DNA of 64,000 nt from Alistipes sp. ZOR0009 (GTDB lineage Bacteria; Bacteroidota; Bacteroidia; Bacteroidales; ZOR0009), in NCBI RefSeq assembly GCF_000798815.1, contig NZ_JTLD01000025.1, forward strand, positions 1 through 64,000, read 5' to 3'. The notes beneath the pieces were generated by a model. It was given only the letters and a program-made list of their open reading frames with translations, ran no database searches and had not been told where the DNA came from. Made by a program: the position numbers and the translations under genes. Shown one piece after another: positions 14,549 through 54,791 of this stretch (the stretch's first letter is position 1; each line of letters begins with the position of its first letter).

Positions 14549-14746
14549 ATGCGCTGGTTGAGTTAATTTGCTGGTTGTTTTACTACGTCTTTATGACGTT
14601 TGGATGGCCGTAAAGTTACAACGGCATCCGAAAATAGCTGTTTTTGCCAAAATAAAGCTCGATTTTAGGCTTAGGCCTTCCGTCGTACGGCCATTTGGTT
14701 AGCGAAGATGATACAAAAAGCTTGCCTAATGTTCCATCTTACTAAG

Positions 14747-14977
14747 TTTTTGTGGCAAAAAAATTGGTTGTTGTTTCACTTTATTTGGTTGGTGAAAGAG
14801 TAACCAAAGTTTTTGTTTCACCAACTTTGATCTTTGTTTTGCGGAAATAGGTTGGTGTAACAACGAAATTGGTTGGTGAAACAGCAGACTATTTTCCTGT
14901 AACAAAAGAATAGTCTTTTGTTACAAAAGATTAGGGAAATGCTCCATTTTATTAGGGAAATGGAACAAAAGAATAGC
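14747..14977. repeat. 21-bp-period array A, eleven units
   Basis: Eleven consecutive units of exactly 21 bases: 14747, 14768, 14789, 14810, 14831, 14852, 14873, 14894, 14915, 14936 and 14957. Columns 5-6 are TG in every unit; column 10 is C in nine of eleven and column 11 is A in ten of eleven, giving a dyad core TGnnnCA. The words TTGGTGAAAC and TTTCACCAA occur in opposite orientations in different units, so half-sites are flipped as well as repeated. Stop codons interrupt the frames, so this is not coding. The sequence is too diverged to be a recent slippage product. Confidence 0.75.
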
Positions 14978-14980
14978 CAA

Positions 14981-15010
14981 ATGGCGTATCGTCTTGTGCC
15001 GATACGCCAT
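14981..15010. terminator. Inverted repeat, probable end of the pst transcript
   Basis: Eleven-base-pair stem ATGGCGTATCG (14981-14991) with CGATACGCCAT (15000-15010), loop of eight. On the plus side it is followed by TTTT; on the minus side, the direction of pst transcription, the following bases are only moderately T-rich. It directly abuts array A. Confidence 0.55.
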
Positions 15011-50363: not shown

Positions 50364-50777
50364 TTAGTTGGTTCTTACAAATATTGTATTTACATCTGAT
50401 ATGCTATCTATGTTGGCATCCCAGTTAATTGCATCTGGATGTGATCCATAAACACCTGTAGTATCCATGCTACCCGATTTATGGATGTTTATATGAAGGT
50501 TACTGCCATTTATCGAAAAAAGAAGGCTTGCGTTATCAGATGCGTAGGGAACTTGGTTTACATACTCTGGATTGATATCCATTGTAACAATACAGTTAAC
50601 TTCTCCGTTGAAGTTGGCATTCGAAACGTTTACATTCTGTATACCTGGATTGTTGTTACTGTTGTTTGGCCATGCTCCTCCCCATGAATCCCCAATTCCA
50701 TAAGTGAGCACGTAATCAAGTGATAAGCTTTCTCCATTTTTACTTACGATCCGAAATGTTGCTGTTGTAAAGCCCAT
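50364..50777 (-). CDS. Small beta-rich protein of unknown family
   Basis: A 137-residue protein with no signal peptide and no predicted membrane helix. It is Asn- and Ser-rich and entirely beta in pattern (ATFRIVSKNGESLSLDYVLTYG, IQNVNVSNANFNGEVNCIVTMD, SLLFSINGSNLHINIHKSG), resembling a lectin or small beta-sandwich. It has its own minus-strand terminator, which supports expression. I do not recognise a family, and no neighbour suggests a function. Confidence 0.6.
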   Translation of the reverse strand: MGFTTATFRIVSKNGESLSLDYVLTYGIGDSWGGAWPNNSNNNPGIQNVNVSNANFNGEVNCIVTMDINPEYVNQVPYASDNASLLFSINGSNLHINIHKSGSMDTTGVYGSHPDAINWDANIDSISDVNTIFVRTN

Positions 50778-51035
50778 TGCCCAAAGTTTAAATTGTTGAT
50801 TGTTTTACTATACATTGATAAATTTATGGTTAATTATACTCTTTGTCAATTTTTTAGAAGCATTGTTTTGTTAAAAACAATGGGTTAAAGACGTAGATAT
50901 ACACAATTACTATACTCTTTAACGCACAAGTGTAACTTAAGGGTGTTTTGTCTTAAACGATAGGCTGTAAGAGGAATATGAAGGTAGATTTTTAGGCACT
51001 GCTTCTTGCTCATCAATAAAGGATGGATAAGTACG

Positions 51036-51250
51036 AGGTTTTGCTATTGTAATAGGACCTTTTGCTTAAGCAAAAGGTCATTGTGTTCAAGTTTTATAAG
51101 GTTTTGCTTTAACAAAATGTCATTTCGCTTAAGCGTTATAAGGTTTTGCTTCAGCAAAACCTTATATCCTTTCAACAAAACGTCATTTCCTTTAAGCAAA
51201 ACCTTATATCCTTTAAGCGAAATGATATATCCTTTAAACAAAACCTCATG
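51036..51250. repeat. 21-bp-period array B, about nine units
   Basis: Cores of form TTHARC occur at 51066, 51086, 51108, 51129, 51150, 51171, 51192, 51213 and 51234, spacings 20, 22, 21, 21, 21, 21, 21, 21. Each core is flanked by half-sites such as GGTTTTGC on the left and GCAAAACC on the right, sometimes producing large dyads: a 24-base perfect palindrome centred at 51067-51068, a 14-base-pair inverted repeat (51137-51150 with 51153-51166) and CGCTTAAGCG at 51126-51135. Degenerate units extend at both edges. Both strands are open by virtue of the 21-base period, but coding is unlikely. Confidence 0.75.
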
Positions 51251-51396
51251 AAATGATTCTAAATAATAGGACACCTCTTTGCTGTAGAGTGTTTTATGGC
51301 AGTAGTTCTTTTGCACCTATCTAAGTATAAAATTTTGCTATAAGTATTAGGGTGATGTAATTGTGCGTTGGTAGTAACCATACATAATAGCAAGGG

Positions 51397-51878: not shown

Positions 51879-54791
51879 ATGAAATTACGTTCTTTTCTAG
51901 TCGCTGTATTGCTTGCTGCCCCAGGTTGGGTTTTTAGCCAGCAGTTTTCTCCGGCTTCTTTTGTTAATCCCTTTATTGGAACAGGGGGGCACGGTCATAC
52001 CTATCCGGGTGCAATTGCTCCTTTTGGGATGGTTCAACTAAGTCCTGATACTCGGCTTACTGGTTGGGATGGCTGTTCGGGCTACCATTTCTCCGACTCG
52101 GTGGTCTACGGCTTTTCGCATACCCACCTAAGTGGTACCGGAGTCTCCGATTACTGCGATGTACTGTTGATGCCCACCGTTGGCAAGGCAGTTTTTAGCA
52201 ACACAGAGTACAGCTCTTCCTTCCGTAAGTCGTCCGAAAAGGCAGAACCTGGCTACTATACAGTTTTTTTAGATAAGCCTCAGGTAAAAGCCGAGCTTAC
52301 TGCACTGCCACGTGTAGGGGTTCATCGCTATACCTTCCCGGCGACCAAAAATGCCAATATCCTTCTCGATTTGGAGCATCGCGACGAGGTTACCGACTCG
52401 TGGATTGAGGTGGTTAGCAATACGGAGGTTCGTGGCTTTCGTAGATCGAAGGCTTGGGCTAATAACCAGGTTATCTACTTCGTAATTCGTTTCTCAAAGC
52501 CCTTTGATGCGGCTACCTTCGATCCAAAGTCGAAGGCTACAGGCAAGGCTGGCAAGTACCTAAAGTGCAACTTCGGCTTCCAAACCAAAAAAGGCGAACA
52601 GGTGGTGGCCAAGGTGGGCATATCGGCTGTTGACATGGATGGCGCAAAGGCCAACCTCGATGCCGAAATGAAGGGGCTTAGCTTTGATTCGGTGCGCAAG
52701 CAAACCTTTGCCAGCTGGAATCGCGAGCTGAGCAAAATAGAGGTTTCTGGAGGAACAAAGGATCAGCAAACCATATTCTACTCTGCGCTTTACCACTGCA
52801 TGTCGGTTCCAAACCTGTTTATGGATGTAGATGGAAGATACTTGGGTACCGATCATAAGATTCATAAGGCGGAAGGGTTTACGCCCTACACCATTTTCTC
52901 GTTGTGGGATACCTACAGAGCATACCACCCGCTGATGACCATAATCGAAACTCGCCGAACTAAAGATTTTATTAATACTTTCCTTTCGCACTATAAGAAT
53001 GGCGGTTTGCTTCCCGTTTGGGAGCTTGCCGGCAACGAAACGTTCTGCATGATTGGTTACCACTCTGTTCCCGTTATTGCTGATGCCTTTATTAAAGGGA
53101 TTAAGGGCTTTGACGAGAAGCTTGCTCTGGAGGCGATGCGTAATAGCGCCATGCAGGATCACTATGGGCTAAGCTGGTATCGTCAGCTGGGCTGTCTTCC
53201 TGGAGATAAGGAGTGGGAGGGCGTATCAAAGACCTTAGAGTATGCCTACGACGATTGGTGTATTGCCCAGATGGCAAAAAAAATGGGTAACACCGCCGTT
53301 TACAACGAGTATATTGCCCGCGCACAGTTCTACCAAAACCTTTTTGATCCTGAAACTGGGTTTATGCGCCCTCGCTTGAATGGTGGCTTTAAGACACCTT
53401 TCAATCCTACCGAGGTAGATTTTAATTTTACGGAGGCTAATAGCTGGCAGTACAGCTTCTACGTCCCACAGGATATTGCTGGATTGGTAAGGATGCATGG
53501 TGGTGCTGCTAAGTTTTCGAAGAAGCTGGATGAGCTTTTCTCAACCGAGCAAGATCTTAGCGGAAGACATCAATCTGACATTACCGGACTTATTGGGCAG
53601 TATGCGCATGGCAATGAGCCAAGCCACCACATGGCGTACCTCTACAACTTTGTGGGCGAACCTTGGAAGACGCAGCAGCGCGTGCGTCAGATTATGGACG
53701 AGATGTATACTACCAAGCCTGATGGCCTGATTGGTAACGAAGATTGCGGACAAATGAGCGCATGGATTGTCATGAGCGCGCTAGGATTCTATCCCGTGAC
53801 GCCAGGTACTACCGATTACATTATTGGGACTCCTTGGTTCTCGAAGGCTACCATCAACTTGGAGGATGGGAAAAAGTTTACCATTACAGCACCCCAGGTT
53901 GACTCGAAGAACTTCTACATAGCCAGTGCCACCTTAAACGGCAAGGCGTATACCAAGAGCTATATCGACCATTCCGATATCATGAAGGGCGGAAACCTTA
54001 GCTTTACCATGAGCGCAACGCCAAATAGGCAGTGGGGCGTAGGCAAAGGCAATGAGCCAGTAACGGCTATTGAGAGCTACAGCAGAACAATTATCCCGAA
54101 CATAAAGGCAAAGGCCAAAACCTTTGTTGATAGCACAACCATTACCCTGCATAGCACCGAGAAGGACGCAAAGATATACTATACGCTAAATGGTAGCGAT
54201 CCTCGTACAAATGGAATGCTATACGGACACCCAATTACCTTAGCCCGCAATACGCAGGTTAAGCTGGTGGCGGTTGTACCGGGTAAGGATACTAGCTTTG
54301 TTGTAGAAGGCAACTTCTATAAGGTTAGAAACGATCGTAAAATAACCATTGCTGCCAAGTATAGCGATCAGTATACCGCAGGAGGTCCATCAGGGTTGGT
54401 TGATGGAGTACGCGGAGAAAGCGATTTTCGTTTAGGTGGATGGCAGGGCTATCAGGGACAAGATTTTGTCGCTGTTGTAGACCTTCTTTCGGAGCAGCAG
54501 ATTAGCAAGCTTGCAGCAGGTCTGCTACAGGACACCCGCTCTTGGATCTTTATGCCACGCGATGTAGAGTTTTACGTGAGCAACGACAATGTGAACTTTA
54601 CGCAGGTGGCTAAGGTCGTTAATACTATTCCTGAAAACCAGGAAACAGCGCTTAAGGACTTTGCCGCTTCGGTAAACGTAAAAGCGCGCTACGTAAAGGT
54701 GGTTGCGCATAGCTACGGTATGCTACCTCAGTGGCATATTGGCGCGGGCTCGCCTGCCTACATCTTTATTGACGAAATTGTAATAGAGTAG
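51879..54791 (+). CDS. GH92 alpha-mannosidase with C-terminal CHB_HEX and F5/8 type C modules
   Basis: Exported exo-alpha-mannosidase that trims high-mannose N-glycans, calcium-dependent in the family. Signal peptide about 1-20 (MKLRSFLVAVLLAAPGWVFSQ). The GH92 catalytic part (about 24-740) opens with NPFIGTGGHGHTYPGAIAPFG, and includes the conserved GNEPSHHMAYLYNF and GNEDCGQMSAWIVMSALGFYPVTPGT blocks. A chitobiase C-terminal-type beta-sandwich (about 745-815, TLNGSDPRTNG) and a discoidin F5/8 carbohydrate-binding domain (about 820-970) follow. At 970 residues it is longer than a bare GH92. No SusCD or other glycosidase is nearby. Confidence 0.94.
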   Translation: MKLRSFLVAVLLAAPGWVFSQQFSPASFVNPFIGTGGHGHTYPGAIAPFGMVQLSPDTRLTGWDGCSGYHFSDSVVYGFSHTHLSGTGVSDYCDVLLMPTVGKAVFSNTEYSSSFRKSSEKAEPGYYTVFLDKPQVKAELTALPRVGVHRYTFPATKNANILLDLEHRDEVTDSWIEVVSNTEVRGFRRSKAWANNQVIYFVIRFSKPFDAATFDPKSKATGKAGKYLKCNFGFQTKKGEQVVAKVGISAVDMDGAKANLDAEMKGLSFDSVRKQTFASWNRELSKIEVSGGTKDQQTIFYSALYHCMSVPNLFMDVDGRYLGTDHKIHKAEGFTPYTIFSLWDTYRAYHPLMTIIETRRTKDFINTFLSHYKNGGLLPVWELAGNETFCMIGYHSVPVIADAFIKGIKGFDEKLALEAMRNSAMQDHYGLSWYRQLGCLPGDKEWEGVSKTLEYAYDDWCIAQMAKKMGNTAVYNEYIARAQFYQNLFDPETGFMRPRLNGGFKTPFNPTEVDFNFTEANSWQYSFYVPQDIAGLVRMHGGAAKFSKKLDELFSTEQDLSGRHQSDITGLIGQYAHGNEPSHHMAYLYNFVGEPWKTQQRVRQIMDEMYTTKPDGLIGNEDCGQMSAWIVMSALGFYPVTPGTTDYIIGTPWFSKATINLEDGKKFTITAPQVDSKNFYIASATLNGKAYTKSYIDHSDIMKGGNLSFTMSATPNRQWGVGKGNEPVTAIESYSRTIIPNIKAKAKTFVDSTTITLHSTEKDAKIYYTLNGSDPRTNGMLYGHPITLARNTQVKLVAVVPGKDTSFVVEGNFYKVRNDRKITIAAKYSDQYTAGGPSGLVDGVRGESDFRLGGWQGYQGQDFVAVVDLLSEQQISKLAAGLLQDTRSWIFMPRDVEFYVSNDNVNFTQVAKVVNTIPENQETALKDFAASVNVKARYVKVVAHSYGMLPQWHIGAGSPAYIFIDEIVIE

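What the first reader, a model, noticed from the sequence alone, without database searches (positions are those of the whole stretch)
51036..51250. Second 21-bp array with palindromic cores in the 1.1-kb gene desert
Nine cores TTHARC lie 20-22 bases apart (seven spacings exactly 21) with half-sites GGTTTTGC and GCAAAACC in alternating orientations, generating several long dyads including a 24-base perfect palindrome. The combination of pitch, dyad symmetry and mixed half-sites suggests cooperative binding of a dimeric protein. It precedes the mannosidase gene by about 600 bases.
Basis: partly seen in the sequence, partly recalled or inferred. Interest (0 to 1): 0.78.

Follow-up and report, generated by a model that had tools for sequence, protein, structure and literature searches.

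The report
Genome-wide non-coding 21-base repeat arrays
The region is one of an estimated 130-290 non-coding repeat arrays per genome in this bacterial genus that nearly all repeat every 21 (or 41-42) bases while their letters differ from array to array, which makes it an unusual kind of bacterial "satellite" DNA rather than a switch for the neighbouring mannosidase gene.

Summary
Nine cores sit on an exact 21-bp grid (51066-51234), with mixed orientation, a 24-bp perfect palindrome at 51056-51079 and strong dyad symmetry. It is not a private feature of this locus. In about 1.27 Mb from three congeneric species I found 67 such arrays (61 after curation; an estimated 130-290 per genome). Almost all are intergenic, about 230 bp long, with repeat units of 21, 41 or 42 bp and mostly unrelated sequences. 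Other periods are nearly absent. No shared 21-bp motif exists, the homologous arrays carry stops in every frame, and 41-bp arrays break the frame, so neither one sequence-specific dimeric protein nor a heptad protein explains the class. Dyad mismatches show no G.U excess, so there is no sign of a conserved RNA. Homologous copies lie at unrelated loci, orthologous sites can lack the array, two copies differ by exactly one unit, and neighbouring units are more alike than distant ones: satellite-like behaviour. An IS256-family element abuts such arrays at 22 of 26 places. Best reading: a dispersed, non-coding, minisatellite-like array related in kind to BrickBuilt/PgRS of Porphyromonas. Why the step stays at 21 bp is unexplained.

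The parts
51036..51250 (.). 21-bp-step array (about ten units, mixed orientation; good register 51056-51246)
   Evidence: exact 21-bp grid, TRF 0% indels
51056..51079 (.). 24-bp perfect palindrome GACCTTTTGCTTAAGCAAAAGGTC
51060..51150 (.). left arm of the array-wide quasi-palindrome
   Evidence: I1, 71% complementary, 2 nt between the arms
51153..51243 (.). right arm of the array-wide quasi-palindrome
   Evidence: I1
51066..51239 (.). nine dyad cores at 51066 + 21n (TTHARC except 51087 TTCAAG)
51006..51251 (+). 81-aa open frame through the array, judged spurious
   Evidence: all six frames of the homologous arrays carry stops
51044..51316 (-). 90-aa open frame through the array, judged spurious
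   Evidence: low codon score 12; not conserved
14739..14995 (.). another array of the same class with a different sequence (cores like TTGTAACAA)
   Evidence: dyad 0.65 against 0.53, 0/100 permutations
51879..54791 (+). downstream gene, GH92 (alpha-mannosidase family), no demonstrated link
   Evidence: PF07971 3.9e-188, PF17678 6.2e-80
50364..50777 (-). upstream neighbour, hypothetical protein of 137 aa
   Evidence: no Pfam match

Best explanation
The region is one member of a genome-wide class of non-coding, satellite-like arrays built in 21-bp steps (21, 41-42 or 63 bp). Shown: many mostly unrelated arrays with the same step; intergenic location; presence or absence at orthologous sites; homologous copies at different loci; a one-unit length difference between copies; neighbouring units more alike than distant ones; an ordinary point-mutation spectrum; few indels; an IS256-family element lying at array edges. 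Inferred: an array spreads now and then as a whole, changes copy number by slippage or unequal exchange in whole units, and drifts in sequence. The unit length is inherited because turnover works in whole units, and a 1-bp change that becomes fixed in a 42-bp dimer gives the 41-bp arrays. The dyads and alternating orientation help slippage (hairpins) or come from fold-back copying. The array would then be tolerated or selfish DNA and an IS landing site, not an operator of the mannosidase gene.
For: Period spectrum: at the same threshold only 21, 41, 42 and 63 occur in number. 67 arrays in about 1.27 Mb, almost all intergenic. Sequences mostly unrelated in all-against-all BLAST; no shared motif. 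Window array related to C4:238 kb (76% over 121 bp) and to three G001 arrays (70-76%) at unrelated loci. Three G001 copies 90-95% identical inside with different flanks; L039 carries exactly one extra 21-bp unit. Array present against a 71- or 77-bp interval at two orthologous gene pairs, one in each direction. Near units more alike than far, p = 1e-5, still 10 of 12 arrays positive without edge dimers. ts/tv 1.38. Array types at 41-42 bp: self-reverse-complementary 24, 21-direct 33 (both 12), neither 14 of 59, as expected of higher-order units. IS256-family element at array edges in 22 of 26 places.
Against: If all arrays descend from one ancestor, similarity should be more widespread; most are unrelated, yet indels are rare (67 per 2311 substitutions; 37 of 61 arrays with none). 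That hints at selection on the step or at repeated fresh creation by a process with a 21-bp ruler. No strain-level copy-number data were available. Pooled identity hardly falls with distance, so turnover is weak or old.
Confidence: 0.5

Rival explanations
1. The step is under selection: a sequence-tolerant protein (nucleoid-type or filament-forming) binds arrays whose sites sit two helical turns apart on one face of the DNA, and arrays persist because it uses them to organise or insulate DNA.
For: 21 bp is two B-DNA turns; the step survives 16% substitution with about 0.03 indels per substitution; dyad symmetry significant in 28 of 62 arrays; the IS element sits at array edges, as if interiors were covered.
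Against: No common motif; half the arrays lack dyads; related Bacteroidales arrays use 22 and 23 bp, which are not whole turns; arrays absent at orthologous sites.
Confidence: 0.2
2. A generator with a molecular ruler of about 21 bp makes arrays de novo from local seeds, for example fold-back or template-switch copying at a small palindrome, giving alternating U/U' units; different seeds then explain unrelated sequences with one step.
For: Sharp step regardless of sequence; alternating orientation and two palindromes per 41-42 bp; steps of 20.5-23 bp elsewhere in Bacteroidales.
Against: No enzyme identified; resident Y1/RAYT transposase absent from this genome; dispersed homologous copies show spread of finished arrays; near-far gradient fits gradual turnover.
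Confidence: 0.2
3. The arrays are transcribed and act as hairpin RNA (terminator, stabiliser or small RNA).
For: Very stable predicted folds for this array, z -8.5 and -10.6; BrickBuilt arrays are partly transcribed (PMC4596501).
Against: Dyad mismatches show no wobble excess (G.U 180, A.C 161, other 645); no orientation bias to genes; no Rfam match in the window; half the arrays lack dyads.
Confidence: 0.07
4. The array encodes a heptad-repeat (7-codon) protein.
For: 21 = 7 codons; 81- and 90-aa frames are open here; some other arrays in the genus have an open frame.
Against: Homologous arrays have stops in all six frames; 41-bp arrays cannot keep a frame; 28 of 62 arrays have no open frame; codon score marginal.
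Confidence: 0.03

Closest known systems
BrickBuilt MITE / minisatellite of Porphyromonas gingivalis (Klein et al. 2015, PMC4596501)
   Same: Intergenic tandem arrays of a short unit (23 nt) without spacers in Bacteroidales, 19 places per genome, predicted long stem-loops, non-coding.
   Different: BrickBuilt copies share one sequence and have leader and tail with IS5-type terminal repeats; here units are 21/41-42 bp, sequences mostly differ from array to array, no common leader, tail or terminal repeat, and there are an estimated 130-290 arrays per genome.
PgRS / MITE464 of P. gingivalis (41-nt tandem repeats, described in PMC4596501)
   Same: A 41-nt repeat, the same unit as the 41-bp arrays here.
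   Different: One sequence family with terminal repeats; not described as part of a class of unrelated arrays with one step.
REP / BIME clusters with RAYT transposases
   Same: Intergenic palindromic units in alternating orientation; targets of insertion sequences (PMC1525189).
   Different: REPs share a genome-wide consensus and depend on a Y1 transposase (general knowledge); none is found in this genome and arrays share no consensus.
Operator or iteron arrays and cooperative direct-repeat binders (for example BldC, PMC5859096)
   Same: Regular pitch near two helical turns, dyads.
   Different: Those share a sequence motif for one protein; here no shared motif across arrays.

Membership tests
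BrickBuilt / PgRS MITE | tandem short units, intergenic, no spacers | tested here: met
BrickBuilt / PgRS MITE | leader and tail with IS5-type terminal inverted repeats shared between copies | tested here: not met
   All-against-all of arrays with 400-bp flanks shows no general shared flank; the IS end found at a few arrays belongs to an IS256-family element
REP/BIME with RAYT | resident Y1 (TnpA-REP) transposase | tested here: not met
   PF01797: 0 matches in G000, present in G001 and G002
REP/BIME with RAYT | one palindromic consensus repeated through the genome | tested here: not met
REP/BIME with RAYT | GTAG/CGTC tag at one end of the palindrome | not tested
   Not examined systematically
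CRISPR array | identical repeats separated by unique spacers | tested here: not met
   Units contiguous and similar throughout; no Rfam match in the window
CRISPR array | associated cas genes | not tested
   cas genes were not searched for
Operator array for one dimeric regulator | shared binding motif across arrays | tested here: not met
Operator array for one dimeric regulator | protein bound in vivo, effect on the neighbouring gene | not testable with these tools
   Needs EMSA or ChIP and deletion
Heptad-repeat coding sequence | conserved open frame | tested here: not met
Minisatellite / satellite-like tandem array | whole-unit length change and local homogenisation | tested here: met
   One-unit difference L038/L039; near-far gradient
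Minisatellite / satellite-like tandem array | copy-number polymorphism between strains (VNTR) | not testable with these tools
   One genome per species held

The most novel reading that the evidence does not exclude
The genus (and, more sparsely, other Bacteroidales with 20.5-23-bp steps) has an unknown molecular machine with a ruler of about two helical turns that creates or maintains well over a hundred sequence-unrelated phased arrays per genome, and these arrays do something that depends on the step and not on the letters, such as DNA organisation or directing insertion elements to safe sites.
Probability: 0.2. Interest if true: 0.88.

Novelty: new variant of a known kind. Interest (0 to 1): 0.62.

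Why it matters
A set of well over a hundred non-homologous arrays in one genome that all share a 21-bp step is hard to explain by descent alone. It makes a concrete question testable: does the step come from inheritance, from selection, or from a generator with a ruler? If it is a ruler or a step-reading protein, it would be a new way bacteria shape intergenic DNA. If it is only satellite-like turnover, it still suggests that the Porphyromonas minisatellites are the visible part of a Bacteroidales-wide class, and that an IS256-family element uses such arrays as landing sites. Annotation pipelines will also call spurious small ORFs in them.

Tried and rejected
Rfam: nothing in the window. Pfam on the two array ORFs: nothing. 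A degenerate pattern search for this array in 60 relatives: only one weak match outside the own genome, because the letters are not conserved; that showed the period, not the sequence, is what to search for. Orthologous region in G002: the GH92 relative is preceded by what look like SusC/SusD-type genes without an array, so it is not a positional comparison. Dyad-to-dyad distance spectrum: right peaks (21, 41, 42, 63) but low counts. G.U test for RNA: negative. Y1/RAYT transposase: absent from this genome. Shared motif by Gibbs-style alignment of 32 units: negative. Possibility that arrays are part of the IS256-family element: rejected because IS copies are about 100% identical while their arrays are unrelated and internally diverged, and most arrays have no IS end; gene conversion between IS copies could blur this argument. 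E. coli control, 200 kb: three periodic stretches at the threshold, judged coding. Pooled lag analysis looked flat because long arrays dominate; the paired test replaced it. Literature searches found BrickBuilt/PgRS but no description of an isoperiodic class.

Full report
The observation. The array is where it was said to be. Written in rows of 21, the sequence from 51056 to 51246 holds nine core positions at 51066 + 21n; eight read TTHARC and one (51087) reads TTCAAG. GGTTTTGC occurs three times and GCAAAACC twice, a 24-bp perfect palindrome lies at 51056-51079, and the whole array is a quasi-palindrome with 91-nt arms. Self-match at lag 21 is 0.73 against at most 0.49 in 500 Markov resamples. 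Dyad score is 0.74 against 0.56+-0.04 in versions of the same array with permuted columns (0 of 100). The downstream gene is a GH92 enzyme starting 629 bp away.

A class, not a single site. Scanning own and related DNA for any period from 12 to 63 bp showed that in this genus only 21, 42, 41 and 63 occur in number. At a match threshold of 0.58 the own genome (0.63 Mb) gave 13 stretches of period 21, 16 of 42, 3 of 41 and 10 of 63, with at most one each for all others. The two sister species show the same peaks, with a few other periods of low count. E. coli (200 kb) gave three periodic stretches, judged coding. In about 1.27 Mb there are 67 arrays, 61 after removing coding and duplicate calls. 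They have a median length of 234 bp or 11 units and GC from 0.28 to 0.61, and almost all are intergenic. The counts extrapolate to roughly 130-290 arrays per genome (inference from samples). The array at 14739-14995 in the same window is another one. They occur between tandem, divergent and convergent genes roughly in proportion to the available gaps.

What is common and what is not. The sequences are mostly unrelated in all-against-all BLAST, and an unsupervised alignment of 32 unit profiles finds no shared 21-bp motif (3.92 bits against 3.60-3.93 in shuffles). Of 59 arrays written as 41-42-bp consensus, 24 are significantly self-reverse-complementary, 33 have a 21-bp direct sub-repeat (12 have both) and 14 have neither. 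So the step, not the letters and not always the dyad, is the constant feature. Substitutions relative to the unit consensus are common (2311) and indels rare (67; 37 of 61 arrays have none). A simulation puts the true ratio near 0.03 and shows that detection bias is small at that level. From general knowledge neutral bacterial DNA has a ratio nearer 0.1, so the step is somewhat protected or the arrays are young.

Not coding, no sign of a conserved RNA. This array happens to be open in one frame on each strand. Its four homologous arrays carry stops in all six frames, 28 of 62 arrays have no open frame, and the 41-bp arrays cannot keep a frame. Mismatches within the dyads are random in type (G.U 180, A.C 161, other 645), so there is no sign of selection for an RNA fold, although the predicted folds are very stable.

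How it behaves. The window array has relatives at C4:238 kb in the same genome and at three places in a sister species, with different flanks. The three sister copies are 90-95% identical inside, their flanks differ, and one has exactly one extra 21-bp unit. At two gene pairs with clear orthologues one species has an array and the other only a 71- or 77-bp gap, once in each direction. Adjacent units are more alike than distant ones (p = 1e-5), still in 10 of 12 arrays without the edges, and the changes have an ordinary mutation spectrum (ts/tv 1.38). These are marks of tandem turnover and occasional spread of whole arrays.

An insertion element at the edge. A 1438-bp IS256-family element (PF00872) with 8-bp target duplications in the intact cases lies next to an array in 22 of 26 places in three species. 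The rate for random intergenic positions is about 10% (P about 1e-18). Usually its right end faces the array; in one full copy the left end does. The copies are practically identical while their arrays are unrelated and internally diverged, so the arrays most likely came first. The window array has no such end. Insertion sequences aiming at REP palindromes are known (PMC1525189), and an IS family sits in fixed orientation beside dif sites (PMC10132070, abstract).

Elsewhere. Other Bacteroidales carry sparser intergenic arrays with units of 21, 22, 23, 41-42, 44 or 46 bp, many with palindromic cores. Porphyromonas gingivalis is known for 22-, 23- and 41-nt arrays (BrickBuilt and PgRS, PMC4596501). 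I take these as the closest known kind. The features that define BrickBuilt as a MITE, leader, tail and terminal repeats, are not met here. RAYT/REP is excluded for this genome by the absence of a Y1 transposase.

Verdict. The most likely reading is a satellite-like, non-coding array, one of many, whose step is inherited and whose sequence drifts; its place before a mannosidase gene is incidental. A sequence-tolerant step-reading protein and a generator with a ruler are serious rivals, because the step is sharper and the indels rarer than drift alone would predict. Function at this locus is not shown.

Noticed in passing
L154:16582-18019, L145:16121-17558 and 24 further places in G000, G001 and G002: An IS256-family element (1438 bp, 8-bp target duplications in intact cases) abuts 21-bp arrays of unrelated sequence at 22 of 26 places, mostly in one orientation; relics keep the array-facing end.
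   Followed up: partly
window 14739-14995: Another array of the class in this window, between the gene for a PstB-like ATPase (named from the sequence by eye, not by a family search) and the next gene; different sequence (TTGTAACAA cores).
   Followed up: partly
L046:242-881: Longest array seen (640 bp, about 30 units, GC 0.59); a 209-aa open frame overlaps it and one frame would read N-E-A-S-A-L-N heptads. Could be a coding exception.
   Followed up: no
L126:7620 and 16990, L099:5959, L059:17124, L114:2123, L195:9645, L200, L209, L211, L212, L214: Arrays of 21-23 bp (or 41-46 bp), many with palindromic cores, in other Bacteroidales, suggesting a Bacteroidales-wide class with lineage-dependent step.
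   Followed up: partly
G001 and G002: Y1 (RAYT/IS200-type) transposases present in both sister species but absent from the window's own genome.
   Followed up: no
L043:11667-11931: Array with a well conserved palindrome (CATTTGCAACGTTGCAAATGG) alternating with 20-21 bp of more variable sequence, CRISPR-like in look but not in kind.
   Followed up: no
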